Shown here piece after piece: positions 8,271-55,167 of a stretch of DNA of 64,000 nt. This stretch comes from Ancylostoma caninum (taxonomy: Eukaryota > Nematoda > Chromadorea > Rhabditida > Ancylostomatidae). Within the stretch, counting starts at the first letter, position 1. Each line of letters begins with the position of its first letter. Under the pieces are notes generated by a model. The model saw only the letters and a program-made list of their open reading frames with translations, made no database searches and had not been told where the DNA came from. Made by a program: the position numbers and the translations under genes. Where the stretch lies: positions 1,240,001 to 1,304,000 of the forward strand of contig JBAJFG010000347.1 in NCBI GenBank assembly GCA_037903475.1. The letters are read 5' to 3'.

Positions 8271-8306
8271 AGCCTGAGAGTCCGGCGTCAGCCGGACGAT
8301 CAGGCT
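8271..8306 (-). ncRNA. Stem-loop PL36, copy 1, in Penelope-like 3' region
   Basis: A 36-nt two-tier hairpin: outer arm AGCCTGA with TCAGGCT, a 2x2 internal loop, inner arm GTCCGGC with GCCGGAC, and a 4-nt loop. On the element's sense (minus) strand it lies just past the expected end of the endonuclease frame and is followed by the GC-rich word CTCGCTTCGCTCGC. Two further copies (11,072-11,107 and 55,132-55,167) keep the same geometry with different bases. Confidence 0.6.
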
Positions 8307-8309
8307 GGT

Positions 8310-8762
8310 ATAACATAATTCGAGATATGGAAGTAGTTCATTGGTTACGGTGGGGCACTCCTCCTTGCGGTTCATTTTTGGATATTGGGCGGGAATCCAA
8401 AACGCTCCAGAAGCTTAGCGCGCGGAAATCTCAGTTACGAATTCAATGATTGTGGTTTCTACTTCATAATCGACACAGTCGTGCACTCGCATTCGATGAC
8501 AACCTAGAGGAGTAGATGTACGAGAACTCGATTTCCCCCCAAGGTGCTCCTTGATTGGAACACAGAGTGACCGTGCAGTTCCACCAATGTGTTCGTCACC
8601 GCATTTCCTACATATGATCATGTATATGACACACGAATAGGTGTTATGCAGAGGCGGTCGTAAATACGGTTTTGGACTAATTGGTGTTTCAGGTTCCTCG
8701 GTGGTATTTCCACGATCATGACCAAATCTGACTACTACGCCGAGGTTCAATGACGACCGTAC
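8310..8762 (-). pseudogene. Penelope-like element, GIY-YIG endonuclease C-terminal fragment
   Basis: The minus strand encodes a region matching the C-terminal nuclease of hookworm-type Penelope-like elements: VIYMIICRKCGDEHIGG carries the GIY-like (VIY) and YIG-like (HIG) halves with the CxxC spacing between them, followed by the IKEHL and RTSTPLG-H blocks and an ISAR segment. An in-frame stop at 8,412-8,414 falls right after ISAR. The frame resumes with AFWIPAQYPKMNRKEEC, the usual end of this protein. The reverse transcriptase half is missing: upstream the frame meets minisatellite-2 at about 8,765. Such proteins nick target DNA to prime reverse transcription. This is a 5'-truncated, dead copy. 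The family call rests on remembered sequence patterns. Confidence 0.8.
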
Positions 8763-8775
8763 TTGGAAACTGTTT

Positions 8776-9210
8776 CGAAATGTTTCCCACACCATTGGAC
8801 CACGGTGAACACGTTTTCCATGGGCAGACTCGCATCTCTGCATTCTCCACACTATCGGACCGGAGCGAACCCGTATCCTGGCGTTCTCCACACCATCGGG
8901 CTACGGCGGGTCTTTTCTTCATCGGTGGACGAGCATTCTGTTGTTTTCCTGACTGTTGAGTCCCACAGGATTCTTACTCCATCGATGGACCCATATTCTA
9001 GCGTTATTGAGCCAGAACCGATCCCATAATGGCGGACCGGTATGCTGGTGTGCTCCACAAGAGTGGGCCACAACGGGCCCTTCTGCCGTCGGTCAACCCT
9101 TATTCTGGTGTTATTCCTCGTAATTAGGCCAAACCTGACACGCTTTCCATCGGCGAAGCCTTATCCTAGCGTTTTCACCACGGCACACCTGCTTTCTATG
9201 GGTGCACCGG
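8776..9210 (-). repeat. Minisatellite-2, array 1 (about seven diverged units)
   Basis: Read on the minus strand, units follow the pattern GGGTCCACCGATGGA, AAAGGGCCCGCCG, TGTGG, GAACGCCAGGATAC at about 60 bp. They are much more diverged than minisatellite-1. The array separates the Penelope fragment on the left from repeat module K on the right. Confidence 0.75.
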
Positions 9211-9309
9211 TACCCTTTTTAAATGTCGAAAGTTATGGTAAAGGCTTGGGATCTATTCAGGAATTTTGACTAACTATTTGTTGATTTTGATCAACTATTG
9301 GCTGATTGG

Positions 9310-9790
9310 TTACACAATGTCATGCCTTGCTATATCGAAGCGGTTACTAAGTATGTTAATACGCAACATTTCTCGAGATGGACTGACATCATGACTGCAC
9401 AATCGCATGGAGACCTCAGCGGGGGATGCCGCAAAACAAATCACCATATGAGCCATCCGCGTAGGTCCAACCATCCCCCAGCTGTCGAGACGCTATGGGG
9501 TTCTGAGAGGACCAGCCCATCCTTTACGTGGAGGTGCCTGCAACAGTGGAAGGGTAGTTTTGTTGTTGCGCACCTTGCGCAGCCAGAAAGCTTGTGAACA
9601 CTCCCTCATCCCTATGCTACGAGACCAGCGAACATGATGAAATTATCATCCCGTGCATGCGGAAGAGCCAGGAGCGACGTGACTGGCGAGTCCCGAAACG
9701 AACTTGTCTGAGTTCCTGAAAAAGGGCCATTTCGCCTCACGATTACCGGTGTCTATGAGTGCCGCCGCGTTATTGGCACAATATTTCTCG
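9310..9790 (+). repeat. Repeat module K, copy 1 (inverted partner 31,430-31,990)
   Basis: Shared blocks with the reverse complement of 31,430-31,990 include CACAATGTCATGCCTT, CCGCGTAGGTCCA, GAAAGCTTGTGAACACTCCC/GAAAGCTCGTAAACACTCCC, GTCCCGAAACGAAC and GGTGTCTATGAGTGCCGCC. In both places the module sits on the same side of a minisatellite-2 array, so array and module travel together. No coding frame is conserved. Confidence 0.75.
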
Positions 9791-10378
9791 CGCCCCTGCT
9801 TTACTTCCCGTCATGGTCCATTTTGAGCCCTTGATTTGCTCTTTGCACTCATTGTAACCTCATTTTTCAATTCTCGCTTTACCTTGTTTTCTACAACATG
9901 GACTGTGACCATCCAAGTCAAGAAAATTGAACCTTCCCGCAATCTACTGTCGTTCGACTCCAATCGTGGATCAGACGTATCTCAATTGGCTAAGGATATC
10001 AACCACGCCTGGAGAGGAACTTTTACTCCTGAATAGACAGCAGAAGTGGTTAACCCATTTCAGGCACCACAAATTTGGCTTCGAAGTTGCTTTTCATTCT
10101 GGACGCTCAGTTTGTGGGACATAAAGGCGATTATCCGCTGAGGTTGCTTTAGATGTAAGGAATAATCACTACTGATGCTAACTCTCAACAATGTGTAAGT
10201 TTAGCTAACGCATTCCCCAAAATGCTCGATGAGAGATGGGTCACATTGGGTATGCTCGACTTCTTTGTACAAATTTCACCAAAATGACTAGAAAGAAACT
10301 CATGTGTAGGGGTCTTTCACTACTACCGACTCTACAGGTTCCACAAAAATTCCGATATTAACGTTAAATGTTTCACGA
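9790..10378. other. Unassigned stretch
   Basis: Short plus frames at 9,836-10,036 and 9,927-10,124 overlap in different phases and have no recognisable motif. No repeat partner was noticed. Confidence 0.4.
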
Positions 10379-11045
10379 TTAGGAAGTGTACAACTCTTAA
10401 TAACACGAAAACAAAAAAAACTCATTCCATGATTCCTCCGTTCTTGTGCGTTTACGTGGTCCAACAATTCTTCGGTGTCTTCTTTATGGGCAGTTCGAAA
10501 ATTGCGGCTACTGTAGTTGCCTAACAGCCACTACATGTGACCTCTCATTATGAAGATTCATCTTATAAAAGCTCCTCGGCTGTCCCCGGCTCATTGGTGG
10601 CAGCATGTAGCCTGAAATGACCCAACAGTAGCACATCGTAGTCGTTATCGCAGTAGTTTTTTTTTCGTATCTTAATCTTTCAGGACGTCCTTGATGCATG
10701 CGAAAGCATTGGAATAAGGACGTCATGAACCTAATGCGCTCCTGCGTTTTCTCTATCCTTCCCTTCTCACTCCACTTTCCATCAATCATCGCCCCGACCC
10801 CATCGCCCACAAATTACTGGACTGGCTCCTCCCCTCATCAGATGGAAATTGCTACCTTTTTGCGGAAGAAGTCCGTTCTCTACGACGTCGTGAATTGATT
10901 CGGTTTCTGCACTGTAGCTTTTGCATTTGCCCTTGATGGGTGACTGGGAGTTCCACCGCAAACAAGTCAGGATTGTTTGCTGATGGGGTTTATTTTATCA
11001 CGCCTTCTTGTTTCATCCAAGTGTATATGCTTCACAATTGGAAGT
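10378..11045 (+). repeat. Repeat family R, copy 2
   Basis: The part at 10,600-11,045 matches 51,850-52,262: GTCGTTATCGCA, CATCATCG-CCCG, CCCACAAATTACTGGA, GCTCCTCCC, AATTGCTACCTT, CCTTCTTGTTTCAT. The part at 10,378-10,450 also matches 5,030-5,110. It is a non-coding diverged repeat. Short frames such as 10,508-10,810 minus are not conserved between copies. Confidence 0.7.
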
Positions 11046-11071
11046 GAGCGGTCCCCTTCCTGTTATGTACC

Positions 11072-11107
11072 AGCTTGGTCGCCCGGCTAACACCGCGCTC
11101 TCAGGCT
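11072..11107 (+). ncRNA. Stem-loop PL36, copy 2
   Basis: Same 36-nt geometry as 8,271-8,306, here in sense on the plus strand. Outer arm AGCTTGG pairs with TCAGGCT, all seven positions with two G-T wobbles. Inner arm GCCCGGC with ACCGCGC keeps five of seven pairs. It is followed by CTCGCTCCGCTCGC as in the other copies. The Penelope coding part is not recognisable upstream. Confidence 0.5.
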
Positions 11108-11166
11108 TCTGTTCATGCTCGCTCCGCTCGCATTGCTTTAGTCTGTCATCTTCCCACGGTTATTTA

Positions 11167-12442
11167 TTAGGTTGGTGCAAAAATAATGCGCGTTTGCATG
11201 CCTTTGGTTCCAAACCTCATAACTCCATTCAAAATCGATCTTTTTCAAAAGGCTTAGAACCGTTTTAATCCGCAAATCTTTAGCAATAAGGCAGACGTTC
11301 TCCGACTACCGTGCAATTCTGACAGGACCTTCTAGGATCGACGAACTTCCGGAGGGCAGTTTTGGTATAACTTTAGTCTTCGAGAAAACTCTCGTGGAAG
11401 AGGTCGCCCAGGTTCTCAAGGAAGTGGTAGTCGATGAGCGAGAAGCTTGCTGATTATGATGTAGGACTCCGAGCTTCTTAGCTCAGATACTCCAAGCTGT
11501 GAAGAATCTGTCGTGCAGGGTGTGCCTGGACGGTGCCGTATAGGAGTGAAGAATCCATTTTATTGAGCAATGCTGGGGCCACACAGTAAAGTTTCTAATT
11601 TATTTCATTTACGTCTTAAAGCCACTTACCAGATTAGGAAGAATGAATGAGCTGCAGTGAGCAATTCTTGCAGCAGGTCACCACAAATTCGCCGTGACCT
11701 TATTTTGGTGTTCCTTCGGTTTCTGGGAGTGTTTCGGTGCATCTACCTCGTCCAACTATTCAGCGAGGCACCTCATTTTGTCGAAGAGGGTCTATTCTTC
11801 ACATTTAATTACTAAGCGACCAACTGTTTGGTTGCAATTCTTTCACTGCAAAGGCGCGAAGCAGACCTCTCAACGAGGATCAATGTGGTACTCGTTCTGC
11901 ATGCGCGACTTCAACTCGTCGAGCGTTTTCATCCTCCCATTTTCACTGAAGGGAGGGGTGGTCTGACATCAGTCACCGGCAATGTTCTGCCAAACCAAAT
12001 ATGTTGTTTTGGATGGGTGCTCTTTGATAGTTGTCATCAATTGGGGATCGCAAACCCCAGGAAGATCTATGCGACATTCCTTAATTTCGAAGCAAGGCAC
12101 ACCAAGCCGAAAAATCCGGAAGCAGCTCGGCGGAACGCATTCGCTCACACTCCCTTCGCCAAAACTATGGTAGTATTCCGAGCGGTTCCTGCTGGGATGC
12201 TGGCGAGTTTTAGCTCGCTGAAGTGAGTTTGGCAAAAAACTTGTTTTGGCGCCTTTCCTTCCACAACTAAAAATTCACAGAAAACATGAACTTCGCTCAA
12301 AATGCATGAGCTATTTGAAAAGGCCATGAAATTTGCTACAAAACCATGTGCAACTTCCCATACCTATAATAAGAAACACCGGAAGTTTTCTGCACCGAAG
12401 ATGAAGCAACGAAAAACGCGCATTATTTTTGCACCAACCTAA
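11167..12442 (-). mobile_element. Mariner element, full length, 29-bp terminal inverted repeats
   Basis: The ends are TTAGGTTGGTGCAAAAATAA plus TGCGCGTTT, 29 bases identical in inverted orientation, with TA on both sides (11,165-11,166 and 12,443-12,444). The 1,276-bp length and TTAGGTTGGTGCAAAA start are those of mariner elements of the cecropia/Hsmar1 type. The transposase remnant lies on the minus strand. The element landed about 60 bp after the PL36 stem-loop. Confidence 0.95.
11280..12240 (-). pseudogene. Mariner transposase pseudogene
   Basis: Minus-strand pieces in several frames follow the mariner order. A DNA-binding segment lies at about 12,110-12,190 (YYHSFGEGSVSE, then CFRIFRLG). 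A WLD-like stretch EVDAPKHSQKPKEHQNKV lies at about 11,690-11,750, a degraded catalytic-loop remnant TAPSRHTLHDRFF at about 11,510-11,550, and SLIDYHFLENL near 11,430, where mariners have SPxDYHFF. Frameshifts and stops separate the pieces, so no functional D,D34D enzyme can be made. In living elements this protein cuts and pastes at TA sites. Confidence 0.85.
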
Positions 12443-12479
12443 TAGTTCTCATTTATGAAAAGTATCGTTTCCTCTTATT

Positions 12480-12920
12480 TTCCGGCTCTGAAGTGCCCTT
12501 TCCAGAGCTGTACAACAGCGGGGTGACGTCTTTCCACCTTGTATAGGACCCGGCCCACTCTTCCCTCAGTCGTGAATCGTTTCCACAGCGTCATTTTCAT
12601 TATGGGACGTCGCCGCCCCCTCCACCGTCAGTGAATCCGTTCCTCAGCATCTTCCACACTACGGAGTTCGGGCGACCCCCCCTCCTCTCACCTCAACGGT
12701 GGACCTCGCGATTGACGTTTCCGCAATACAAAGCGCCGGCGCACCTTTCACATATCGATGCATCTTTTTCTCAGCATCTTCACCATACCCCGACTCAAGC
12801 ACCTCCCATATCACTGTGTCGTGCCGGCTTACCCCATCACTGACCTACTGACTACTGCACGTCCTCACACGCTATGGATCAGTTTCCCGCACCCTCTTCC
12901 GAACTGCGCCGTTGACGTTC
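12480..12920 (-). repeat. Strongly decayed minisatellite-2-like tract
   Basis: Repeating words such as CAGCATCTTCCACACTACGG, CAGCATCTTCACCATACC and AACGGTGGACC recur about every 60-130 bases. They resemble the reverse complement of minisatellite-2 (CTCCACACCATCGG, ATCGGTGGAC). The tract is C-rich and non-coding. Confidence 0.4.
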
Positions 12921-15949: not shown

Positions 15950-17400
15950 TAAGCCATATTGTAATCAGAATATTTTTTTATAAAAGCTTGAGTTCTAGAG
16001 GTATGTATGTCGAATTTATGTAAAATATATTTATTTTCGAACAAACAACGAATGTATGAACTTTCAATTACAAATTGACTGTAGTCCATGGTTAAGAGAA
16101 TGTTTTTTGTTTGTGTCAATCTCGTTACAAAGTCTTTTCTCGTAGAAGTCTTTTCTCGTAGAATGGGCGATTCGCAACACTTCAGTATAAATGGTAGCTT
16201 TTTTAAATCCAATTGAAATATTAGTGGAAAAGTGTGGGAATCGTTCAATAGCAAAGCCGAAAGGATCAGTCTTATCATACATTTTTGTTATTATATATAT
16301 TATATATGTTGTTATGTATATTAATTTCCAAATCTAAATAGTTACATTTATTATTGGATTCATGCGTAGTTTCCAACGATAGTACTCTATGATAGACTTT
16401 ATCTAGAAAAAGTGAGGACTGCTAAGAGGGGGCTGAAATTGCCACCCTGAGGTACGCCTGTAATCTGTTTAAATACAAGTGGGCCAAATGAACAAAAACT
16501 ATCATTGAGAAGATAGACCACTAAGAAAAGAACATCTGTAATTGTGTATTGTCTGCAATACTGGTCATAATTTTCTGAATAAAAAACTTTGTTATACTCA
16601 GTACAAATTAATTTCTGCTTATTAGTATTGTTAAAATATAATTTAAGAATTTCTTTAATGTTTGTAAGGATTGTGATGTGTGGGAGATTTGTGAACATAT
16701 CTGTAAAGTCTGCAGAGAAAAGGTAGTCTTATGTCTATTTAGATGTTCACTGATATTTCTATTATTTATCGACCAGTAACCATGAAATAAATGATTAAGT
16801 GTTGTGACAGACTGTACATATTTTTTGAAGGGGTTTTTAATAAAAGTAAATATTCTTGTAAGTTCTAGAGCCAAAGATTTTATGCTGCTGTTAAAAGCTT
16901 CCGTAATATAACGGAATTTTGTTGGAGTTTTGTGTAGTTTTGGTAACGCATATAATGTAGGTATATCCGGATTATCGAGTGGTTTTGAATGATTATTTGT
17001 GAGAAATGTTTGGTGTCTGAGAATGACTTCTTCCCTGGTTTCCCTATCATAATACTCGTAGGTATTTTCAAACCAAACGGACAGAATTTCACTCCACTTT
17101 GAGAGGGAGTGAAATTCTGTCCGTTGCAACTGACGCCCATTTCGTTTATAATTTGTGTGAGATAAAATTTTTACAGATAATTCCATAGTTCCCTTTGGCT
17201 TTATCCAATGGGCAAAAAATGAAATTGTGCTGTAACTTTTTTATTTTCAAAATTCTTTCGTGGTAACGTGTTTCTTTGTGCAAGTATTCCTTGGTAGGAT
17301 TTTGGTTTTAACTTAGATTTTAGTTTTAAAATTAGTCTCCTACCAATCTTTGATAGTTCTGGTAAAGCTGCAGAGCCATCATAACCACGTTCCGGAGCGC
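15949..17400 (-). pseudogene. AT-rich reverse transcriptase pseudogene (Penelope-like, second clade)
   Basis: Broken minus-strand frames follow the order of a reverse transcriptase family that I associate with cnidarian and other invertebrate elements. In order they are FCPLDKAKGN (about 17,200), TLYALPKLHKTPTKFRYIT (about 16,920), QITGVPQGGNFSPLLA (about 16,440, the GxPxG motif), NKCNYLDLEI (about 16,340), and YDKTDPFGFAIERFPHF (about 16,230). The segment that should hold the catalytic YxDD is not found. At least three frameshifts and several stops are present. The region is visibly more AT-rich than its surroundings. No nuclease domain is seen. An exact family name would need a tree. Confidence 0.75.
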
Positions 17401-17990
17401 TGTCGTACTCTAACAGTAATCGTCATCGAAGCTTGAAGGTATATGTTAATTCGTAGGCAAATTTATTCTAAAGAGAGCTCTGGTTCGCTGCATTGGCTCA
17501 TTTATGCCGTCTATGATACGTATCAAGCAATCGTTTTCAAATGATAGTCAGGGAAAGATCGCAATTCTGAGTGCATAGGTGATTCGAATTAGTTTATGAT
17601 TGAGCTTTGTTATAGTAGATTCCTCTGGTGGAATACATTCAAGTTATTTCGTGCACTTATTCATCCAACTAACCAGAGCAGATACAAGTGGTGTGCCAAA
17701 TCACAAACACTTTGTAGAAAATACATACAGCGCAACAGTGCCGCGGAATTCCAACTTCATAGGATTTCTGAGAGGGTTCCTCGTGCTTCTCGTGGTGGAA
17801 GAGCAGAAAGCTTATGACCTGACCATGATTTGAACAGTATCATTCTTCGGGGAGCCAATTTCCCGCTCTGCTTTGTTCCCTCCATCTCACGAAAAGTTTT
17901 CCCATCTTCAGCGAATAATTTGGAGAAAAATAAGAAAAGATATTTTCGTACCTGGTAAATGATAGACTCCCGTGATACCGATTTTCTTCG
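17400..17990. other. Unassigned stretch
   Basis: Two overlapping plus frames (17,596-17,817 and 17,600-17,833) have no recognisable motif and no match in the duplicated partner near 55.4 kb. Confidence 0.4.
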
Positions 17991-18710
17991 CGCTCCTTCG
18001 ATATTGGGAACAACCAGTCATCAGAGATGACGTTGCACTCCCATAACTTTGTGTACGCCCGAAACACAACTGGCTGCGCGACTAATCCGCTATTACTTCA
18101 CTACATCCACTCCTCGTTGCGTACCTTTCACTATACTGACGACCGGTATGTTACTAGAAATGTCCATGAACGCTGGGCTTCCTCAATGAAATACGGCCAG
18201 ACCCTTGCCTTCTGAATTAGAGGACTATTTCAAACTTGTGCAGCTCTTTACCCATTTACCAGCGAAACTAGTGAGTGATTCCTCTTACCACCATTCTCAA
18301 CACCTGCCGAAGCGGCAGCAATCCTCTGGAAGGTAAAACCCTGGCCCGTGGAGTAGACAATGAAGCGGTAAACAGCGCCCTCCAAAAATTACATGAGGAT
18401 GTAGGGCTACGGATGGAGCATGGGGGAAAATACTACTTTCGTGTCTCGTCTTCTTTTGTCTAAAAAATCAATTTTTACATAGAGGGTGAACTCTGCCTGC
18501 AAGTTCAGGTTTCTTCCACTAATTCGATTGTAACACCATTGACTGGGTCGTTGTAATTTGAAAAATTATAACAGGGAACATTGATTAGGGTTTTCAGTAT
18601 GAGTTGACAACCCTGCTCAATGAGGGAGGTTTTAGCAAAGAGACTTAAGTTTATTTCCTGCCGAAGACCAATCTTGTGTGTCTCACAGGAAAACCACGGC
18701 TGCTGCAATG
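17990..18710. repeat. Duplication D, copy 1 (partner 55,440-56,245)
   Basis: Shared blocks in order include CCGAAACACAACTGGCTG, GCGACTAATCCGC, CAGCGAAACTAGTG/CAGCAAAACTAGTG, CAAAAAATTAC/CCAAAAATTAC and CCACTAATTCGATT, then GATTAGGGTTTTC. The direct repeat is diverged. A minus-strand frame at 18,505-18,708 has a counterpart in the partner. Confidence 0.75.
18505..18708 (-). CDS. Conserved minus-strand frame in duplication D, unknown
   Basis: A 67-residue frame aligns without gaps to the frame at 56,043-56,243 over about 42 residues. KTSLI, then KTLI-VP-YN and PVN---IELV are shared. Neither has a signal peptide, membrane segment or known domain that I recognise. It could be an exon of an unknown gene, or an open frame kept by chance in a young duplication. 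Upstream on the minus strand another frame (18,748-18,969) has six cysteines and no known match. No splice model could be made. Confidence 0.25.
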   Translation of the reverse strand: MQQPWFSCETHKIGLRQEINLSLFAKTSLIEQGCQLILKTLINVPCYNFSNYNDPVNGVTIELVEET

Positions 18711-29000: not shown

Positions 29001-32000
29001 CTTATCCACCCTCATCTAAATATGATTGGCTGTTTCTGCAACATCGGACGCAGGGCTGTCGTGGGGGACCCTCACATCTTCGACGCATCCAAATTTGCCC
29101 GTACCCTACGCATTTAGTTACCCATTGTTGGACTGCACCGCGGTTTCACCGACATCGGGCTGGCCAAACTAGGCGGGCACCCCCAGGTGAGTCTTGCAGG
29201 CTCACCAGGCTCAATTGATCTTCGCCTATGCTGACGCTCTTCAACCGGCTTCACACATTTACAAGAAGGGGGGGGGGGGGAAGGGGTGATCGTCACGTGG
29301 CAACTGGGGACTGGAACGGAAGACGTGAGAGAGACAACGTAGGTTAAATCTGCAGTTGATAGGGTCAGCAGTTACCCTCCAATCCCCTTCCCTAATCACA
29401 TCCGAAACACAAGACGTTCTGTTCCCAGCACATGGGACCCCGCGGTTCACCGCTGTCGCAGCAAGGACTGGTCCACATTTTTCATGGCATGTCTGTTTTA
29501 TGCGGCCATCGGTGATAAATTGAAAAGGGTATACATGCTAAGACCAGTGGCGGACGCAGAAAGTGGGCGGGAGGGGGGGCGTGGGAAGAAAAGTGGGGTC
29601 TCCGCCGTTTTGGGGACCCAGACGGAAAATAAAATCAATAATAATATTAATTATAATAATAAACAATAAATAAAAAATATATTAAAAATAATAATAAAAA
29701 TAAACAATTAAAAATAAACTAACACAAGATTTTTATTTGTATTGTAAAGTAATTTCGAAAATTTGGCGACCCATTCTCGGGGGGGGGGCGCCCCCCCCCG
29801 CCCCCCCCCTGCGTCCGCCACTGGCTAAGACTATCGTCTTTTTGCTCATCACACTCTGCCTATCCTCGTCCAGTAAGTGTGCCATGTTTAATCAAAAAAA
29901 TTTCCACAATATACAGCATGAGAACATGCTTGCTGTGCTGTGTAATACCACTGACAAAATTCTAAACTCGAAATTATAGTAAATGACGCGCTGCTTAGAA
30001 AAAATCGGAGATGAAATAAGCGAAACAGAGATTCTCTACATCACCCTTGAAAAAAGTAGATTACTGAGTTGATTTTGTTATTCTAACTCTTTTGGTTTGT
30101 GGCGACTAACTTCTAACTATTCTAATATAACAAAGCGCAGACCCTCCATGCCACGTGAGTGAACGCGTCGCGGTAAATGTATCTGTGTTTCAGTAACCGC
30201 GCGGCACTGCAGCCCTTTCACCCATATCAACGGAAATTCTGAGGTTGATGAAGGTAGCGAAGTGGAGGAGAGGTGGAGGAAGATGTGATACCGCAAACGG
30301 CATGAACTCAGTCAACGCCTCGGGCGTCCCAGGGGAATCTTCGCTGTTGTCCTCTAACAGTCCAAAACGAAGTTGTATTTTAAAAACTCGCGCCACGCTC
30401 CAGCATTCTCGCCAAGATCAACGGGAAATCTTGGCGAGAATGCTTTCTGAAGGCAGCAACGCGGAGAAAAGGTGGAGGAGGGTGTGATTTCGCAAGACGA
30501 CAAATGACCGACCCAATGGATTAGGTGTTGAGAGGGAATTCGAAACAGCTACTTATTCCGTAGCGGCATGTTTATAAAAAGAGGAACTCATGGAACTTTC
30601 TCTGAACTACATAAGAGGGATCTACTTCAAGGTAGCAGTGCTTGGCACAAAGGCATATTTGGAATGAAGACATTTTGGAGTGTATTCGCAGGAAATCACT
30701 GTCATCCGCGAAGCGCGGTAAAGCTACGCTTTGTGGGATGACAATGATCTTCTTTCCATGCTTTTTTTGAGTTGAGTAGGACCGAAAGGAAAGTGGCTCA
30801 CTGTTACGACTCGTAGTGCCGCGAAGCGGCGCCTCCAATTAATTTTGAATAGTCAAACTAACCGTATGCTTTGAATGCTTTTCTTTCTAGCGTCTAACAA
30901 CTCTTGTTCGAAGCTATGAGTCCATTGCCGCAGCAGCTCCGTACGATTCGTTTGTTCTTGGTCGTCCAATGTTCTCCAATCAATATCTCGAAACATCTAA
31001 AGGCACACCAACGGTTCTACAGCACTTGCAAAAAATTCGTCATAGTATCAGCTGTTCACATTCAGCAAGAACCTTCGTTCTTTTCTTCGATGAGTTTACT
31101 GCGCGCTAATTAGCGTGAGCGCCTGTCATAGCATAAGGCGTGTTACGACCAGTTTTTTTTGCAGCGTTAGTGAAATACATGTAATGTATGACAATGTATG
31201 ACTTGTTTATTCTATTTTTACGTTATTCTGCTCTGATTGCTGTGAGATCTAACTTTTTTTCAAGGTTTCTTTTCTCTTTAATTTTCCATCCTTTACCGTA
31301 TTTCTATTAGTTTGGCAGAAGTTGCGCACTTCTTCAGAACCGTGTAATTTTATATGTAGTATGTAGGTGACATGTAGTATGACATCCGGACGTGGATACA
31401 CATTAGTGCCACAAAGCAATCTTATTCGCTGTGTGTGGGAGATGTCAGCTGGAGTTAGAAGTCATGAAATCTATTAAACAAAGCGCCGTAAGGGGGCTAG
31501 AGCGGTTAGAGATACGAGGCGGCACTCATAGACACCGCAATCTTGAGGCGCAGACTGTGGGGCGGAATGGCCGATTTCCATGGACGCAGACACGTTCGTT
31601 TCGGGACTCGCAATTACGTCACTGCTGGCTCTCCCGCATGCACGAGGTAGTGGTTTCATCACCTTCGCTGGCGGTCTCGCAGCATAGGGATGAGGGAGTG
31701 TTTACGAGCTTTCAGGCTGCACAATGTACGCAGCAGGAAAACCAGCCTTCCACTGGTGCGACGATGTGTGCACTTGCAGGAAGAAATGGACGGGTGTTAT
31801 GAGAGCTGCAGCGTCTCGGAAGCTTTGGTGTGGCTGGACCTACGCGGTCGCCTTATTTGGTGGAAGCTATTGTCGCATCCCCTGCTGAACTCTCGCAGCG
31901 ATTGTGTAGTCGCGACATCGTTTCGAGAAAGCTTCTGCACTAGCAACGAGTAAAAGCCTTTGAATATGAAGGCATGACATTGTGTATTCAATCAACTATA

Positions 32001-35000
32001 TACGGATACGGGTCCAGCGATGGAGAAAGGGCCCACTGTGGCCTAGTGGTTTGGGGGACGCCCCAGGATACGGGTCCACCTATGAAGAAAGGGCCCGCCG
32101 TGACCCAGTTGTGTGAAGGACGTCAGGATACGGGTCCACCGATAGAGAAAGGGCCCCCGTGGCCCAGTGGTTTGGGGGACGCCAGGATACGTACCCACCG
32201 ATGGAGGAAGGACCCGTCGTAGCATAATGGTGTGGAGAACGTCAGGATACGGGTTCACTTTAGTCCGATAGTGTTGAGAATGCCAGGATGCGAACCCGCC
32301 CCTGGAGAACGGATCCGGCTCGCCTTAACTATGAGGAAGGCGCCAGAATACGGGCGCTCTGATGGAGAAAGGGCTCGCCGTGGCCCAGTAGTATGGATAA
32401 CACCAGAATACGGGTCCGCCAATATAGGATTGGTCCGCTGTGACTCAGTAAAGCGGAGAATACCAAGATATGGTTCTGGCCTAATAGTGAAGATGCCGCC
32501 AGAATACGGGTCCACCGATGGAGGAAAGCCCGCTGCGGCCCAGTAATCTGGGAAACACTCGGATACAATTTCGCCTTGTTCAATAGTGTGGAGAACGGCA
32601 GGCTACAGTTCCGCCGATGGAGAACGCGTCTGCGTTAGCCCGGTAGTGAGGAATACGCACGAATACGATGGAGAACGAACTTCTCATGCTCATGCTCAAC
32701 TCATAAGAAGGACTTCATGTTTGGGCCCACTGGAAAATTGGTTCTGCTTCTTTATAAATTTTCTAGATATTTGGCAAGTGTGAAGCGTTAGCGCATGTCC
32801 CAAGTGGCTGCCCCACCCCACTTTCTAGCGTCCCGAAGGGGCGCTAGTAATAGAAAGTTTCAAAAAATTGCTTTTTCAGTTTTCTGAATTTAGAGAATTT
32901 TTCTGTAACACACCGAACATTACAGCAAAAAAAAACACTTTCTTTTTATTAGACTTATTTTATATTCCAAACTTGAGCATGGGTGACGTCTTTGCCGTTA
33001 GGGGAACGTAGATGAGCACATTTTGAAGAATTTTTAGAATTTTCAGGATTCTGGATAGGTGATTCTTTCAGAGCCGCTTAAGGGAAAAAGCACCTTCAGC
33101 AGTCCTGTTACGTTAAGTGTTTGTGGCTCGCGATCTGCTAGAAAACCCTAGAGATGCTCAAAAGTGCATTTTCTGCATCACGCAGTTTTCCTAAAGTTTG
33201 CTCCCAAGAGCTGGCAAGACGTTTGATAACTTCACTGGGTGACTGCTATGTAGTCATCACAATCACAGTCACACATCACATCTCAGGAAAATTGTCGTAT
33301 TTCTGCCAATTTGAGCAGATTCGGAATCCTTTACCTCGCAGGGAAAACTGTCGAACATGACGACCAGAGAACGGGATTTTCCCCCTTCTAGCTATTTGTG
33401 GAGAACCTCGTGGAAGATTCCGTATAAAAAGCAATGGTCCTGCTAAGCAAAGGAGTTATATCGTTCGGAGATCTTACAGCTAATTCAAGTTGACGGAAGA
33501 TGAGAATCAACACTAAAACGCGCTATTTCAGCCGCACAATCTGATGGTTGTTCTATTTTCTTACCAACGACTCTACTAATTCACAAAAGTTGCTTGTTTT
33601 AGTGAGCTGCATCAAAGCTGTAGGTTAGAGGAAACAGCCGAGTGATCAATGTGCTATCCAGTGAAAATGCAGCACTATCGGCTTTTTGGTTTTGGTCTTT
33701 ACCCTTTGTTGCGACACTCGTTTACTTCTCTCACACAATACTAAACTTTGGGTTATCAAAAGAAGATATCTTGGGAATCTTCAAATTGACCTATTTCACT
33801 GAAAATAAACCTATTTCACTGAAAAGCAGCTCGTTGGACAACCTAGGACAAGAGAATCTCTGTTCACTACCATCAGAATATAGAATACTTCTATTACTAG
33901 GAGCAGATGCAAGACCGGAAACCTCCTCCAATGCGAAAGACACTCTCAATGTCTTCCCTCAGTGCTCAAGTCAAGAAGGCGGTGGAACGAAGAAGGGTAA
34001 TCTTGATTTTTCTTTTCTTCTTTCAGCAGTTATGCCGCAATACAGAATCTGTTCTCCAATTAGATATAGCCAATCATTCATGCTATTCGAATCCGAATTC
34101 CGAACTCTCTAATAGATCTGTGCACAAATATTCACTTAATTTTGCTTTTGATCCTTTTCGCGACGTGAAGAAATCACATGTGCTGGTCTAAATTCTGTAG
34201 GAAAAATTCGTGACATTTCTTAAGGCCGAAGGAAGCTGTTTAACACATTCGCGACCATACGCTTTTGGCATGGTGTGTCACATGGGACACACGCGCTTCT
34301 GCACAAGTGGGACCCGTGCTCAACCACTTGAGCACGTGATCCCACGTGGTAGGAATTTTTCCTCCACCGCAGAATACCCCGAATTTACGCAAATCTGAAC
34401 ACGATTTTTTTTCTTTTTCGTGATCGTCAAGAGTGTTTCCAAATGTTCGTCGTCCATTCACTTGATTCTGATTGTAGTTTCTCTTTGATACGTATCGTTC
34501 TCTCTGGTGTATGTTTCAACCACATATTACAAAGAGGTTAAGTGAAGATCTGCTCTGCCCAGTGCATGCATAGAAAGCTTGAATATTTGTTAGTATAACA
34601 CTACGTAGAAGTTTGCTAATTATGACTGCTTCACAGAAATACAGCTCTGAAAAGATCGTGCTCACCCGGTCGAGCACGCGGTCCCACGCGTCGCACCATT
34701 CGTGTCAGCCGGTGGAGCACATTGTTGCGAAGGTGTTACACCTCACACAAGCGGTCCTCTTTGTAGTAGCTTCGCCTGTATGGTATCAGTTACGGCATTA
34801 GGTTAATATGCAAATCGTCCGAAACGACGTTGTGCTTTTCTGAGATTTTTGATAAGGTGGGTTTATAAGCTTCCATTCTGCTGTTGTAAAACAAACCTTT
34901 TATATGTACTTATTCTTATCAAAACTACTTCTGGATCCATTTGCGTTCACATGTCTTTCCCTCGATGTCGACATATTCTTGTAAACACGCCATTGGTTCT

Positions 35001-36783: not shown

Positions 36784-38526
36784 AACTAGTTTCTTCTATT
36801 GCGTCTCAGACTGAAAAGGATTCTGAGAGGTAGCTAGCATTATTTGGCCCTTGTCGGTTAACAGTACCTACCATGATATATATTCTCTCTCAGATCAGAC
36901 AGACGTGTGCGGAAAAAGGGTCTGCACTCATGGTTGTGTACCAACTACTCATTGGTTTCAAAGTAATGACGAGTGGTAAAGGAGTTCGCTAAAATTATGG
37001 TGGAAACCGAGAGCCTCATTATCCACCACGCCATGAAATTGTGGATATGGAATCGGCAGGAACTGCGCATTCTTCGCGACCAGCTTTCATACATTACTGC
37101 ACAGATTTATAACATAGAACTCTTAGTGCTCGTAACCTTATTCAAATTTGTTCATGAATGCTCATGAACGATGTCTGAGAAGTGAGGAACTTCCTCAGGA
37201 TAACGTAGAATTCTTCATTAATATGTTCAACATAGTGCAGAGCATTATCATTCCTAGTCTCTGGTGCCTCTCTGAAGCAATTGTTTGATCTGATTTGCTA
37301 ACGTGTTATCATGTTGTTTTTGTTAGATTTCCACATGAATCAGTTCATTTTTGACTAAACTATCCATAGATAAAGAAGTTAAGGCTAAAATACCACTATT
37401 AACCTTGTGGATTATCGCACATGATTTTTTTAGGGAATGCCTGTAGTGAAGTTAGAGAGAAGTGATGACAAGTGTTTCAAAAGAATTTTGGATGCATGCG
37501 AACACCTTTTCCGAATGGTCAAGCCGACGCATGACGTTCTCCAAGCCGTTGGGCGATATATCCACATCTTGGTGTTTTCCACAATGCTCAACACCGGCAG
37601 ATCTATCATCCATCGCTCTTATTCCGGCGTTTCCCACCAACACGCATGGCGAACCACAATGCCGAAGGTAGAAGTGTTTAGTTAGGAGTGGGGTGGGGGG
37701 TAACCTGGCACGTAGCAGGGCATTGCAAAAGTATGGAAAGTTCTCAACCGAAAAAGTCCTCCTCACCAGCACAACTACCAAAGCGGTACGTTACTCCTCA
37801 CCTAGTCCGTCGTTCCACATGCGATAGCCGGCGCCATCGACAAAACGCTTCCTTCTTTGCAAGTCTCGCACTTCAGAAAAATTACAAACTAGCTTACAGT
37901 CTGTTCATTGCACTACAGAGATCCTAGTGCAACCTATAAAAAAGGTATAGAAAAAAACATCATCTCTAAGGACAAATAATGAAATGGTGGCAGAAAAACT
38001 GCAAGCTCTAACACATAATGGAAAAAAGAGCGTGAAACAGTTATTGTGTAGTACACAGAACGCAGTATATCATCAAGGGCCAACAGCACTTCCCTGGCAG
38101 GTGCTGCTTCAGAGCAAAGTGAGATAAATGCCGGCTACCATGCTAACCTTGAGCGCTTACTAGCTATCTATGGAATGCAGGATATCAAATAAGGATAACA
38201 AATTATTCTCTGACGTTTCTTCAATCTATCTTTCCATCTCTGTTTCTTGGCGGACCGCGGATGCATTGAGTAAATAAATAAAATATCAAGAGTTCAATCT
38301 GTAGAGATAAAAATGTCAACTAATGATGTGGGTGGGAAGTTTGTGGTCATCCCTTACGAGATGGATGTCGCTTTAAGACAAGGACTTCTTCAAGATTTCT
38401 TTTTGTATCGTTCATTTTCAGCAGTGGATTCCTCAGCCAGTACCGCAAACTAAACAGAGAATGGGCTAGTGAGGCAAAATCAGCTCGACCTCATCCAACT
38501 GCCTCAAAATAGATCTGCATAGTTGT
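36784..38526. other. Unassigned stretch 3' of the chemoreceptor gene
   Basis: Overlapping frames at 37,437-37,685 (plus, three phases) and 37,452-37,781 (minus) have no domain that I recognise. A polyadenylation signal for the receptor was not clearly located. Part of 37,480-37,680 may be a repeat, but no partner was found in the window. Confidence 0.4.
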
Positions 38527-39850
38527 CCTGTTCTATACCTCCCTATCAAAACTCACAAGTTCCAGGCCAGCGATGATCTCAAGTCCAAGGACCCTTCCGC
38601 TTTCAGAGTGAGATCCATCGTCAGCTACGTGAGAGGGCCAACGGATAGGATAGGGTGGTTCTTGAACATCATATTCGGACAGATATCAAAACACATACCT
38701 GCCCACTTGGCCAACACCCACATGCGTCTCATTCGTCTGCGCACAACAAATATTACAGAGGTTTGTATCATGGAATCCTTTGATGTCAATGCGCTATATA
38801 CTAATGTTTCTAACGATCCTGCGATGCAAGCAGTTTTTGAGCTGCTATCTGAACACGTCGAAACCATTAACCTTTATGGTTTTCCAGTTTTGATGCTACT
38901 TTTGAAACATGTCTCAACTTCGATGTATTTCTTTAGTACGGAAAGTGTTTTGCGCACATTAGAGGCAACGGGACCGAGTTTGGCTCCTAACCTATCCATA
39001 GCCTCAGTGACCAAAATTGAACTATCAACATCAGAGTGTCATTCACTGCACTACGTTACATCGACGATCGCTCCGCCATCTGTGTTACCCAAGCCGAGAT
39101 GAACAAATGCTTCGAACTGGTCGAGCAGTCCGAGCACATAAAGCTCATAAGAAACAATCCAACTGATGGCTGGCTTCCCTCTCTGAACGTCAGGTCAAAA
39201 TTACTAAAGGTGTTTACTGGACGAAATGATACCGCACGCCTAGCAGCAAAAACATCTTTGTTCACTTCCTCTCTGCCCGTCCCACTCATATGAAAAGAGT
39301 TGTCATTTTAAACATGTTTCTCACAACAACAAAACCTGTAGTAGACAGGCAGACAAGGAAGGGTCGCTCGTACTAATTCGGCAGATTGCGATGTGTGGCA
39401 GAACTGTAGATGATTATTTCAAAAAAAAACGTAAACGTAAACTAGTTACTGTACGTGCTGCAGCAAATGACGCGAAAGAGAGGCGGGAGGAGGGAGGTTC
39501 TTCCAACTTTTTTGACGCAACACGTCATCATCTCGCAATGCTGCGATTCCTTGTGGCATGTGACTGAAACAAGGCGAATGGTGGACTCTGCTCCAGGTGC
39601 GAAGCCTCCAAAATCTCGCTGAAAAATGCAAAAAGTCTACAAACGCTCTCCGGCCCTATCCTCTACACCTTCACCGTTTCCTTCGGCCTTACCGTGTTGT
39701 TGCGCATCGTTCTTCTGATTTCACTGGGAGGGTTGGCTAGAAACCACTACAGTCGCCTAGTCAAAAAGCCAAACTTGATAGCACTTGGCAGTCTTCTGGC
39801 AACAACATATGATTGTCGCCTACTTCTGCTATGACTTCCGCTTTCTGTTG
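38527..39850 (+). pseudogene. Penelope-like element, reverse transcriptase pseudogene
   Basis: The plus strand follows the hookworm Penelope-like protein: LYLPIKTHKF (38,545), KDPSAFRVRSIVSYVRGPTD, IPAHLANTH, MESFDVNALYTNVSNDPAMQ with the first catalytic Asp (motif A), a degraded GLAMGQRLAP region reading TGPSLAPNLSIA (motif B), YIDD at about 39,065 (motif C), EHIKLIR, then LVKKPNLIAL and LLATTYDC (about 39,750-39,810) from the linker before the nuclease. At least four frameshifts separate these pieces. The GIY-YIG nuclease is not found. It is inactive. Confidence 0.85.
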
Positions 39851-44225: not shown

Positions 44226-44229
44226 TTCG

Positions 44230-50480: not shown

Positions 50481-50700
50481 CCTGAAAGAGTCGAGTCGAT
50501 CCGTTAAAGTACTCGGACAAACACCTCCTCAATCCAACTTCGATCCGGATTATACCCGAGAATCACGAATAACCCCAGCGGTAACCCACTCACCTCTTCA
50601 CAAGTCCGCCAACCGGGTGATGTTTTGGACGACCGGCCGAACACGCAGAACTTGGAAACAGTATGAGACGTTCTGCCATTAGTCATATCTCGCGTCATAT

Positions 50701-50733
50701 TAGTATAGTATAGTATAGTATAGTATAGTATAG
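50701..50733 (+). repeat. Microsatellite (TAGTA)n
   Basis: Six to seven tandem TAGTA pentamers, continued by imperfect AT-rich copies to about 50,762. Confidence 0.9.
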
Positions 50734-51179: not shown

Positions 51180-52265
51180 TTTTGTAGCTCATATCAGTCC
51201 TGTGATTCCTTTTTGTGGTTTCAGAACTTGCCACGCCTACCTTGACCACTAACACCAGTTCATCCGTCGTTATGCCTGCAAATGTCAAGAATGCCTCCCG
51301 GTTCTTCAAACTTCTTTTCCAAAGCCATCTTCTTTTCCTGGATTCTTCCACATGTTCATCTTATGAAATTACTTCCGCTCCTCTTCAAGTAATCTTCCGG
51401 TAGAGCGTAAACAAGCAAAATTGCGAAAGCATATCCAGACATCTCTCTGAACTCAGGACAGAGCCGGTCGTCTGTTCTATTTTTGCATAGGTTCTTTCAG
51501 ATTAGATTAGTTTGTTAAAATTAGATGTTCAATTGACCACATTGGCTTGTGGAAATAGCACTTTGGAGAAGGCTAGCGCATATTGTCTCGGTTATTGTGA
51601 CCTATTCCACTTTATTTTCATTTTTGCATTATTTAAATGTCGACTGTATCATGACTAGTTTTACAACTCCTTGAATAACATGGAACTCACTTCATGCTTC
51701 AACCGTTCTTCTCTCCGTCCATGAATTTGTCGGTGTGTAGGTTTTTCCTACTATTTATCTCTGGCTCCTTTATCAACACCCTAGTGGATACATGTACGTG
51801 TATAAATAACCTTTCAGACTTCTGAGACTCAAAGATGAAAGCACGTAGTGGGAATTGAACAACGAGGCACAGTCGTTATCGCATTTTCTGTTTTTTTTTT
51901 TGCTGATTGTCGTCTCCACAACGTCCCTTACTGCATGTGGAAGCGTTGCACTCCGTTACTGCCCCTGTTTCTTTAAGTTTCCCATCTCATCGCATTTTTC
52001 ATCCATCATCGTCCCGTCCACTGCCCACAAATTACTGGATTCGCTCCTCCCTCCAGCAAATGGAATTTGCTACCTTCTCCCCGGAGAAACTCCGTCGTTC
52101 TCGATGACGTAAAGAATTGACCCAGTTCCTGCACTTAAGCTTCGCATGAGCCTTACGTCCGAGTGGGCGTTGCCTAGAATTCCACTACAATCGAATCAGG
52201 ATGTTTGTTAGTGGAGTTCATTTCGTTACCCCTTCTTGTTTCATTTACGTGTGTATCCTTCACCA
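51180..52265 (+). repeat. Repeat family R, copy 3 (long version)
   Basis: The left part matches 4,570-5,210 and the right part (51,850-52,262) matches 10,600-11,045, so this copy joins the two parts that lie 5.4 kb apart on the left side of the window. The 5.4-kb interval there is therefore likely inserted material. Non-coding. Confidence 0.7.
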
Positions 52266-54150
52266 GACAAATGACTGATTGCGTATAAATTTTATTGCTC
52301 ATTGATATGATTTATACATAAATGTAGTCTAGCGACACGGAGGCAGTCAGCCCATTCTCTCTTCGTCACTACTCTCGCAATACTTTGCCTACTTTAACTA
52401 CTGTTCCCCAAGTAGCTTCCAGTATTCATCGAGGCATTCCGCTTTTCGTCAAACGAGTTGGTATTTCAAAGAAAGCTCCATTCCATAAGTTCTCTTAATC
52501 ATTTCATTCCGGTTTACGATTTGCAACGGACTATGTAGCTCCTTTCATCTTGATTCTTTTGATAGCCACTACCTCTATGATATCAGTGAGTGAGTCCAAA
52601 TATCACACATTTGTTCTCTTCTCCATGAGATGTCTTAACATAGGCAAGCTTTTTTCCCAAATGGTTCTGTCACTATCCACCTCTCGACTCCATGACAGAT
52701 TAGAGAAAAAAGAATAGTGCTCGTTTACGCAACTTCCTCCTCTGCCGTTCTGGAATTCTAAGAAGTTTCGTATTTGTATGGAGCTGAGCATTTGGATATT
52801 CCCAGTTGGTTCCAGAATTTACGTTTGTTACTCGTTTACGGACATCTGATACCCAGCCTCATTCCTGGTCAGTCACGGCGATCTGTAGAATGGTCTTTCT
52901 CAGCACACTGTGTGTGCAGTAAGTGTGGAAATTGATCCAATTGCTCCGTCCACGGGTTTCAGGCTAAGAGGGAGTCTCAGGCGAGTTACATAGATACCCC
53001 TAAACTGCAGAGGAGTTGTAATCTTACCCAGACAGACTCATTTACTGAAGGAATCGTGTCTTAGTCCAATTGTCCGCCGCTCCAATCTAGCCGAGCACGC
53101 TCCGCGGCAGGTTGGGTATTAGATATCAAGCAACCAAAATCACTGGTCAACATATGATTCCTCCAAAAATAGACCCCTGTCAATTTTTGACGTCTTTATC
53201 GCTTAAGCTGTGCATTCTAATGTCATATTGAACGTCAGCAAAGTGAAAACAAAAAGCGGAAAGGGTAGCGCCGTGCTTGTATTCATGCTTGAAATTAGAA
53301 GACGCTTCACAATTGCCCGACATGTAAACGAAACAACATTAAAAAATGCTCCACGCGGATGAAGATTGAAGATTTTAGAGTGCTTTAGCTGGTTTGTGAG
53401 CAAGTGTATATAGCTGCTTATTCTCTTTTGCCTTACGTGCGCCATAAAGCACCTCGCTGACCCTCCTTCACCATTTATCTAGCGAACAGCAGAATTCCTT
53501 GGAAGTCTGGAGTACCCATTATGACCAAGTTCCGAATCCGAATCTGAAACGAATCTGAGTGTAATCGTCAGACCTGACTAGCTGGTGCGGTTATATTTGA
53601 TGTTCTAGTTTGAATTCATTTAAAGAAACCTCTGGTTTGTTACTTTGACATATTTTTTACTTTAGTCAACCGATACTGTTCTGGCATTCAAGCTACATAG
53701 ATAGGGTGTTCGCAATACGAACGGTACGAAATAGTGAGAAGATAGAGATGACTTTTACTATGTACAACATGTCTGAGGTTTATAAGCATGTTCGCAGCTG
53801 TCGAGACTTCAATAATAGCCATTCGGCGGCAAACTTCCGACGTCATAACGCCATTCTCAAACCTAAAAAAAACTACCATAACTACCATATCAATACTAGC
53901 ATGTCCGGATTACTTGTTTATTTAGTAGCTCATTCACTTATTCACTGCACCAGCACGTAGGTACTGCCCAAACACAGCTATATAAAATCATGATCATGAC
54001 TTATAATAACGGGCTTACTTCGTCTGTCACGTGTGTGTGTGTCAGAAACGAAATTCCCTGATTGGCCAGTGATGGTGATTACGAGGTCAACAAGATGATA
54101 GGGACGGGTATGGTGAGGTTCAAAGAATGAAGAGAAGCTCTAAAGGATGG
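52265..54150. other. Unassigned 1.9-kb stretch
   Basis: Short frames only (52,603-52,791 minus, 53,203-53,445 minus, 53,688-53,888 minus, 53,706-53,960 plus), none with a known motif. No repeat partner was noticed. Confidence 0.4.
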
Positions 54151-54175
54151 GGAAGTGGAGAGCGGTGAGTGCACC

Positions 54176-54675
54176 GCGGTGTGGAGGGTGCGCCGGCGTC
54201 GAAAAGTGGGGAAACGCCTGGAGTCGCGTCCGACGGTGTGATAAGGGTGCACCGGCGTCCAAAAGTGGGGAAACGCCTGGAGTCGGGTCCAACGGTATGA
54301 TAAGGGTGCGCCGGCGTCCAAAAGTGGGGAAACGTCTGGAGTCGGGTCCACCGGTGTGATAAGGGTGCGCCGGCGTCCAAAAGTGGGGAAACCCCTGCAG
54401 TCGGGTCCAACGGTGTGATAAGGGTGCGCCGGCGTCCAAAAGTGGGGAAACGCCTGGAGTCGCGTCCGACGGTGTGATAAGGGTGCACCGGCGTCCAAAA
54501 GTGGGGAAACGCCTGGAGTCGGGTCCAACGGTGTGATAAGGGTGCACCGGCGTCCAAAAGTGGGGAAACGCCTGGAGTCGGGTCCAACGGTGTGATAAGG
54601 GTGCGCCGGCGTCCAAAAGTGGGGAAACGCCTGGAGTCGGGTCCAACGGTGTGATAAGGGTGCGCCGGCTTCCAT
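54176..54675 (+). repeat. Minisatellite-1, array 3 (about eight units of 59 bp)
   Basis: Highly uniform units hold AAAAGTGGGGAAACGCCTGG, AGTCGGGTCCAACGGTGTGA and TAAGGGTGCGCCGGCGTCC. Variants (GCGTCCGACGG with GTGCACC) recur in two units, suggesting copying of multi-unit blocks. All three minus-strand frames are open across the array because the unit lacks stops and 59 is not a multiple of three. These frames (198, 168 and 155 residues) are not genes. Confidence 0.95.
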
Positions 54676-55090
54676 AAGTAATAGGAATTCGCTAGGCGGG
54701 TCTATTCCTGCATGAGGGGTACGCTTATCCTGTTTCGGCAGACCTTCCTATCTAAATCGCCTAGATGTACATTGTTTCCTTTCGTACGGTGTTCTCTTCC
54801 CATTCCATTGGAGAATAACCACTCCTTCCTTTCCATTTATATACACCGGTGGACCCTTATCACTTGAATTACCACGCAACCAGTTGAGCCTGAATCATTT
54901 CAACATAACATTTGCACTGAATTGGTTACACTCAGTTCTTCACGGCCATATACTTCGCTCATATGGAAGAGCATAACTTCGTTCATATGGGGGAAAGCTA
55001 CCACTTACGGGATCAAGGGTTTCTCAGGAGAGCGATCGAACTGCGTGGAAGGATGCAGATTTCATCAATCCATCAACACTATCGTGTTTG
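54676..55090. other. Unassigned stretch
   Basis: No structure beyond two copies of an ACTTCG(C/T)TCATATGG word at about 54,952 and 54,978. Confidence 0.4.
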
Positions 55091-55131
55091 CTTTCAACGT
55101 GCAGTATGCGAGCGAAGCGAGCATCATTAGA

Positions 55132-55167
55132 AGTCTGGAAGTCCGGCGTTAGCCGGATGGCCAGACT
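55132..55167 (-). ncRNA. Stem-loop PL36, copy 3, in Penelope 3' remnant
   Basis: Outer arm AGTCTGG with CCAGACT, a 2x2 internal loop, inner arm GTCCGGC with GCCGGAT (one wobble), and a 4-nt loop. On the minus strand it follows the phrase YTSLAIRLTPDFQ, matching YTSLIVRLTPDSQ of the 8.3-kb copy, and precedes GCTCGCTTCGCTCGC. Relative to copy 1 the outer arms differ at two positions on each side, and pairing is kept. Confidence 0.6.

What the first reader, a model, noticed from the sequence alone, without database searches (positions are those of the whole stretch)
8271..55167. A 36-nt stem-loop with compensatory base changes at three Penelope-like 3' ends
Copies at 8,271-8,306, 11,072-11,107 and 55,132-55,167 all have the same geometry: 7-bp outer stem, 2x2 internal loop, 7-bp inner stem, 4-nt loop. 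Outer arms are AGCCTGA/TCAGGCT, AGCTTGG/TCAGGCT (two wobbles) and AGTCTGG/CCAGACT. Pairing is kept while bases change, so the fold rather than the sequence seems to be selected. Each is followed by a CTCGCT(T/C)CGCTCGC word in element sense. A 3' RNA structure could be what the element's reverse transcriptase recognises.
Basis: partly seen in the sequence, partly recalled or inferred. Interest (0 to 1): 0.75.

Follow-up and report, generated by a model that had tools for sequence, protein, structure and literature searches.

The report
Palindrome at a Penelope retroelement's end
Three worn copies of a short hairpin, one of them right where the coding part of a nematode Penelope retrotransposon stops, resemble palindromes reported at that spot in rotifer Penelope elements; pairing seems to have been kept, but three copies cannot show which strand folds or what the fold does.

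Summary
The hairpin is real but unevenly preserved. Copies 1 and 3 fold far better than shuffled sequence; copy 2 does not. In element sense 14, 12 and 13 of 14 pairs form, so "7+7 bp in all" is wrong. Only copy 1 follows a GIY-YIG endonuclease frame, starting where most close relatives' proteins end; copies 2 and 3 have none, but all three are followed by related 59-bp-unit arrays. I read it as the 5' edge of a strongylid Penelope pLTR, where Adineta vaga pLTRs carry 18- and 38-bp palindromes (PMC3846280). Recognition by the reverse transcriptase is disfavoured: the purified anole Penelope protein needs the first 172 nt of its ORF, not the full pLTR (PMC11167929). G.A mismatches on the antisense strand hint that this strand folds. 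The own-genome search did not complete (17 tries), so no larger alignment could be built.

The parts
8271..8306 (-). Copy 1 of the 36-nt palindrome, element sense on minus; 14 of 14 pairs on either strand
11072..11107 (+). Copy 2, element sense on plus; 12 of 14 pairs in sense, 11 of 14 on the other strand; decayed, not clearly more stable than shuffles
55132..55167 (-). Copy 3, element sense on minus; 13 of 14 pairs in sense, 14 of 14 on the other strand
8249..8262 (-). CTCGCTTCGCTCGC word after copy 1; the small second hairpin does not form here
11118..11131 (+). CTCGCTCCGCTCGC word after copy 2, centre of a possible small second hairpin (weak, not better than shuffles)
55108..55121 (-). CTCGCTTCGCTCGC word after copy 3, centre of the same possible second hairpin (weak, not better than shuffles)
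8313..8728 (-). Penelope-like GIY-YIG endonuclease remnant in two frames with one in-frame stop in the 8636-8313 match; the match ends 6 nt before the hairpin
   Evidence: tblastn with P0014, 69% identity, 8636-8313, E 1e-47; P0016 extends it to 8728; Pfam PF01541 in P0014 and P0016
7950..8171 (-). 59-bp-unit array after copy 1, 99 nt beyond the hairpin (a second block at 7300-7497 belongs to a 660-bp direct duplication)
12546..12760 (+). Degraded stretch related to the 59-bp arrays, after copy 2 and beyond the mariner-like insertion, same orientation relative to the hairpin
   Evidence: 62% over 222 aligned nt to the copy 3 array, E 1.2e-5 in the whole-window comparison, E 3e-9 in the pairwise one
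54185..54679 (-). 59-bp-unit array (8.4 copies) after copy 3, 452 nt beyond the hairpin
11165..12444 (.). Mariner-like insertion (31-bp perfect terminal inverted repeats) between copy 2 and its array-like stretch; the mariner label is recalled from the terminal sequence
   Evidence: 11165-11195 matches 12444-12414, 100%

Best explanation
The 36-nt hairpin is an interrupted palindrome at the ORF/3'-repeat (pLTR) junction of a family of strongylid-nematode Penelope-like retrotransposons. Copy 1 is a 5'-truncated element that keeps the endonuclease end; copies 2 and 3 keep only the sequence from about the stop codon onward (solo-pLTR-like). In living ancestors the palindrome most likely worked as a fold-back structure near the 3' end of the antisense strand (antisense transcript or first-strand cDNA), helping to prime or join strands during Penelope replication; this would give the head-to-head inverted structures known from Penelope elements. 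Shown: the palindrome, its placement after the endonuclease frame in copy 1, the related arrays, three compensated pairs. Inferred: that the sequence is a pLTR, the Penelope origin of copies 2 and 3, which strand folds, and self-priming.
For: Copy 1 placement: the tblastn match to GIY-YIG protein P0014 ends at 8313, 6 nt before the hairpin. Of the five relatives with at least 74% identity (P0014, P0016, P0017, P0062; P0015) four end in C-N/D-I at that point and one, P0017, ends a few residues earlier. Homology between copies begins 4-12 nt before the hairpin in the three pairwise comparisons. All three are followed, in the same orientation, by arrays related to one 59-bp unit. Copy 3 interrupts repeat X: 55175-56253 matches 17726-18707 in two pieces and a match resumes at 53498-53655 with 17359-17503, E 3e-6. 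Three Watson-Crick covarying pairs; P 0.0014-0.010 in a star-tree neutral simulation. On the antisense strand the 2x2 loop holds two G.A mismatches in 3 of 3 copies, 8-29 switching from G.A to A.G in copy 3, and the tetraloop is bounded G...A in 3 of 3. Antisense energy is lower in 3 of 3, as RNA (-28.8/-25.8, -14.0/-13.2, -27.2/-21.6) and as DNA (-16.1/-15.3, -6.3/-3.8, -13.8/-12.5). Literature: A. vaga Pen2 pLTR with an 18-bp and Pen3a with a nearly perfect 38-bp palindrome at the pLTR 5' end; the authors infer self-priming from palindromes at inverted junctions, which 'would have to occur on an antisense template' (PMC3846280, passages and Discussion).
Against: Only three sequences. The shuffle control reaches the observed covariation in 39 of 500, and 10 variable positions placed at random give three or more two-sided pairs with P 0.16. 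Counting G.A as a pair type, four covarying pairs have P 0.005-0.054. No strand preference in paired cells (39 of 42 each). No complete element with two pLTRs was seen in the window, so 'pLTR' is inferred. No endonuclease match at copies 2 and 3. In the five listed hits between copies 1 and 3 the four array hits are 77-93% identical and the hairpin module 78%, so the module is not exceptionally conserved. No inverted pair of hairpins was found. The copy 2 array is weakly supported. The anole element's 126-nt UTR, as printed in the passage seen, shows no such palindrome by eye.
Confidence: 0.5

Rival explanations
1. Sense 3'-UTR RNA structure bound by the element's own reverse transcriptase.
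For: Position at the 3' end of the coding frame in copy 1; outer stem kept 7/7 in sense through two wobbles in copy 2.
Against: The anole Penelope needs the first 172 nt of the ORF, not the full pLTR, and starts reverse transcription inside the ORF (PMC11167929). Element-sense 2x2 loops are pyrimidine-pyrimidine and the sense fold is the weaker one in 3 of 3 copies.
Confidence: 0.12
2. DNA palindrome that extrudes or is recognised as DNA at the ORF/pLTR junction, where the Penelope endonuclease cuts and tandem copies are built.
For: On a DNA target made of its own ORF-pLTR junction the anole protein most often cleaves an ATT motif just downstream of the junction (PMC11167929; other targets were not compared in what I read, beyond genomic reads showing AT-rich sites). 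An AT-rich lead directly precedes the hairpin; pairing is equal on both strands, 39 of 42.
Against: No cut-site data for this family; 7+7 bp with mismatches is short for cruciform extrusion (inference).
Confidence: 0.17
3. No function now or recently: an ancestral palindrome inherited by decaying copies; paired changes are chance transitions or arm-to-arm correction during replication.
For: Stems vary as much as loops (10/28 against 3/8) and 12 of 13 variable hairpin columns are transitions only; copy 2 no longer folds clearly better than shuffles; a random-position test gives P 0.16.
Against: Neutral simulation of three covarying pairs P 0.0014-0.010; G.A loop mismatches kept in 3 of 3 copies.
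Confidence: 0.21

Closest known systems
Adineta vaga Penelope pLTR palindromes (Pen2_Av 18 bp; Pen3a_Av 38 bp), PMC3846280 (passages and Discussion seen)
   Same: Palindrome of similar length at the 5' end of the repeat of an endonuclease-bearing Penelope family; solo pLTRs also occur there.
   Different: Different host; here the palindrome has a 2x2 mismatch and a loop and is followed by a GCGAG-type word and a 59-bp array; no pLTR pair shown. Sequences were not compared.
Hammerhead ribozymes of Penelope-like elements (PMC11167929; Cervera and De la Pena 2014 seen only as a reference in it and not held)
   Same: Structured RNA at a pLTR/ORF boundary of Penelope elements.
   Different: No Rfam match at gathering threshold in the window and no hammerhead up to E 10 in the two stretches around the copies; no CUGANGA...GAAA core in the hairpins; the anole ribozyme spans the start of the ORF, not its end.
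Anolis Penelope (PAc) AC-rich stem loop where reverse transcription initiates, PMC11167929 (main-text section read)
   Same: A stem loop in a Penelope RNA.
   Different: Located 111-118 bp inside the ORF start.

Membership tests
Canonical (EN+) Penelope-like element | C-terminal GIY-YIG endonuclease next to the feature | tested here: inconclusive
   Met for copy 1 (E 1e-47; PF01541 in the relative). Not met for copies 2 and 3: best of 81 relatives E 0.60 and 2.8 in the upstream stretches
Canonical (EN+) Penelope-like element | Telomerase-like RT in the same ORF | tested here: inconclusive
   No RT match upstream of copy 1, but copy 1 is 5'-truncated, so absence says little; an RT remnant at 38292-39203 is not joined to a hairpin
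Canonical (EN+) Penelope-like element | pLTRs on both sides | not testable with these tools
   No full element in the window; own-genome search did not complete (17 calls)
Penelope pLTR 5'-end palindrome | Palindrome starts directly after the ORF | tested here: met
   Copy 1 only: hairpin starts 6 nt after the codon aligned to the relatives' conserved cysteine near the protein end; copy 1's own stop is not preserved
Penelope pLTR 5'-end palindrome | Palindrome lies inside a repeat present at both element ends | not testable with these tools
   No 5' pLTR seen
Hammerhead ribozyme | Core CUGANGA / GAAA | tested here: not met
3' recognition structure for reverse transcriptase | Protein binds it or needs it for priming | not testable with these tools
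   Biochemistry seen only for the anole element (PMC11167929), where the full pLTR is not needed

The most novel reading that the evidence does not exclude
A module of about 70-85 nt (AT-rich lead, 36-nt hairpin, GCGAGCGAAGCGAGC word) is shared by diverged strongylid Penelope families and folds on the antisense strand into two hairpins of one plan: Watson-Crick helix, two G.A mismatches, Watson-Crick helix, G...A-bounded loop (the second one matching the recalled d(GCGAAGC) mini-hairpin). It acts as a snap-back primer at the 3' end of antisense RNA or cDNA, which would explain the inverted structures of Penelope insertions.
Probability: 0.17. Interest if true: 0.7.

Novelty: new variant of a known kind. 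Interest (0 to 1): 0.4.

Why it matters
How Penelope elements make their second strand and their inverted and tandem copies is not settled (PMC3846280 and PMC11167929 both leave steps open). A conserved palindrome at the ORF/pLTR junction in nematodes as well as rotifers would point to a shared step and gives a concrete, testable cis-element, including which strand folds.

Tried and rejected
Known RNA family: Rfam at gathering threshold over the whole window gave 0 matches; up to E 10 over 7800-11400 and 54700-56300 it gave two weak, unrelated matches each, none at a hairpin. Hammerhead core pattern: 11 matches in the window against 6.5 expected, none in a hairpin.

Coding explanation: of 81 endonuclease relatives, 53 show the end motif used; 33 of these end 18-25 residues from the motif's first residue, i.e. 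about where copy 1's match ends, 3 end sooner and 17 run longer, so the hairpin is probably not conserved protein sequence, though some predicted proteins extend.

Shared 3' tail of three different mobile bodies: considered because copy 3 abuts repeat X and copy 2 abuts repeat Y; for copy 3 a weak match to X resumes beyond the array, so insertion into X is preferred; for copy 2 no resumption was found. By eye I thought I saw an endonuclease-like stretch upstream of copy 3; tblastn with 81 relatives does not support it.

Second hairpin around the word: predicted by RNAalifold, but as DNA it is not better than shuffles and copy 1 lacks it.

Outside copies: one exact pattern in viral contigs and genome contigs, 0 hits each; P0014 scans of the same two collections, 35 and 583 pattern stretches, none a relative. 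These collections are of viruses and of bacteria and archaea, so the absence says nothing about nematodes. Literature on the word: one paper holds the exact letters, on swine Torque teno virus detection (listing only; not followed). For a hookworm or nematode Penelope hairpin, the listings (the last three capped at 15 of 16, 15 of 79 and 10 of 94) show no paper that by title or start of abstract describes one; the library is open-access only. Not used: structure prediction, fold search, similarity search in phages, plasmids or E. coli, metagenome scans.
Full report
OBSERVATION. Copies 1 and 3 lie in element sense on the minus strand, copy 2 on plus. Copies 1 and 3 fold far better than shuffled sequence on both strands (RNA z -5.1 to -7.3, 0 of 200 shuffles as good); copy 2 does not (z -1.4 on both strands, 22 and 21 of 200 as good; as DNA 153 and 51 of 200). 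In element sense the pairs formed are 14, 12 and 13 of 14; on the other strand 14, 11 and 14. The common geometry is exact for copy 1, nearly so for copy 3, and partly lost in copy 2. A sequence profile and a covariance model of the three find no fourth copy in the window.

COVARIATION. Three pairs change on both sides and still pair: 3-34 (C-G, C-G, T-A), 7-30 (A-T, G-T, G-C) and 11-26 (T-A, C-G, T-A); the last was not in the finding. A neutral star-tree simulation from a perfect hairpin, restricted to runs with 9-11 variable stem sites, reaches three Watson-Crick covarying pairs with P 0.0014-0.010 and 39 of 42 paired cells with P 0.02-0.14. A shuffle control reaches the covariation in 39 of 500, and sliding the partner by 1-3 columns gives at most one two-sided pair. 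Placing 10 variable positions at random among 28 gives three two-sided pairs with P 0.16. Twelve of 13 variable hairpin columns are transitions only, against 6 of 11 in the lead, spacer and word columns (Fisher P 0.06). Verdict: suggestive, underpowered, not proof.

SURROUNDINGS. Copy 1 follows a Penelope-like GIY-YIG endonuclease remnant (8636-8313 minus, 69% identity to P0014, E 1e-47; extended to 8728 by P0016). P0014 (unnamed ENA contig) and P0016 (Ancylostoma ceylanicum) carry Pfam GIY-YIG; the window's own frame gave no Pfam match. Of the five relatives with at least 74% identity, four end in C-N/D-I just there and P0017 ends a few residues sooner. Copy 1's own stop is not preserved, so the stop is inferred. 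The named relatives are strongylid nematodes, the nearest named ones Ancylostoma, which is the basis for calling the host hookworm-like. Copies 2 and 3 have no endonuclease match beside them (81 relatives, best E 0.60 and 2.8). All three are followed in element sense by 59-bp-unit arrays: copy 1 after 99 nt, copy 3 after 452 nt, and copy 2, beyond a mariner-like insertion at 11165-12444, by a degraded stretch at 12546-12760 (62%, E 1.2e-5 in the whole-window comparison). Homology between the copies begins 4-12 nt before the hairpin and ends 22-39 nt after it, in alignments of 86, 72 and 66 columns. The four array hits listed between copies 1 and 3 are 77-93% identical, the module 78%, so the module is not unusually conserved. 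Copy 3 sits inside a diverged repeat X with matches on both sides; copy 2 abuts a repeat Y without a found resumption.

WHICH STRAND. On the antisense strand the 2x2 internal loop consists of two G.A mismatches in 3 of 3 copies, with positions 8-29 changing from G.A to A.G in copy 3, and the tetraloop begins G and ends A in 3 of 3. The sense strand has pyrimidine mismatches there. Predicted energies are lower for antisense in 3 of 3, as RNA and as DNA; in copy 2 the RNA difference is only 0.8 kcal/mol. The downstream word also reads, on the antisense strand, as a possible small hairpin with the same G.A plan (copies 2 and 3; broken in copy 1), but its predicted stability is not above shuffles. 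That tandem G.A pairs are unusually stable, and that d(GCGAAGC) is a stable mini-hairpin, is recalled; PMC10527192 passages describe such mini-hairpins in general. Paired cells give no strand preference, and allowing G.A as a pair type weakens the simulation result to P 0.005-0.054.

COMPARISON. The nearest published thing found is in the bdelloid rotifer Adineta vaga: an 18-bp palindrome at the 5' end of the Pen2 pLTR and a nearly perfect 38-bp one at that of Pen3a; the authors read palindromes at inverted junctions as self-priming, on an antisense template (PMC3846280; passages and Discussion). The anole PAc study, by its own account the first purified active full-length Penelope protein (PMC11167929; main-text section read), places the needed RNA within the first 172 nt of the ORF and the start of reverse transcription 111-118 bp into it, with the full pLTR dispensable; this argues against a 3' hairpin as the enzyme's recognition site, for that element in vitro. 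[quoted passage not shown]

CONCLUSION. Best reading: a palindrome at the 5' edge of a strongylid Penelope pLTR, of a kind known in rotifers, probably once used as a fold-back structure of the antisense strand; identity fairly likely, mechanism open. The larger alignment that would decide it could not be made because the genome search did not answer in 17 attempts.

Noticed in passing
38292-39203 (+): Remnant of a Penelope-type reverse transcriptase in three frames (to P0010 of Ancylostoma duodenale, 81% over 59 aa); no hairpin copy nearby.
   Followed up: partly
16608-17240 (-): 210-aa open frame with a Penelope-RT-like stretch by eye (recalled motif); no Pfam match.
   Followed up: no
60457-60601 (-): Short endonuclease-start remnant in two frames (best E 8e-7 with P0090); no hairpin copy found near it.
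   Followed up: partly
31514-32669 and 8782-9770: A 60-bp-unit array with flank, related to the 59-bp arrays. The copy upstream of the copy 1 endonuclease lies inverted to the 3' arrays, as an inverted pLTR would, but matches the copy 3 array (67%) and not its own 3' array at E 0.1.
   Followed up: partly
54079-54747 (-): The 59-bp array is open in all three minus frames for 183-222 codons.
   Followed up: no
7004-7500 and 7664-8160: Direct duplication at 660-bp spacing (71%) of array plus following sequence after copy 1.
   Followed up: partly
11165-12444: 1.28-kb mariner-like element with perfect 31-bp inverted ends next to copy 2.
   Followed up: no
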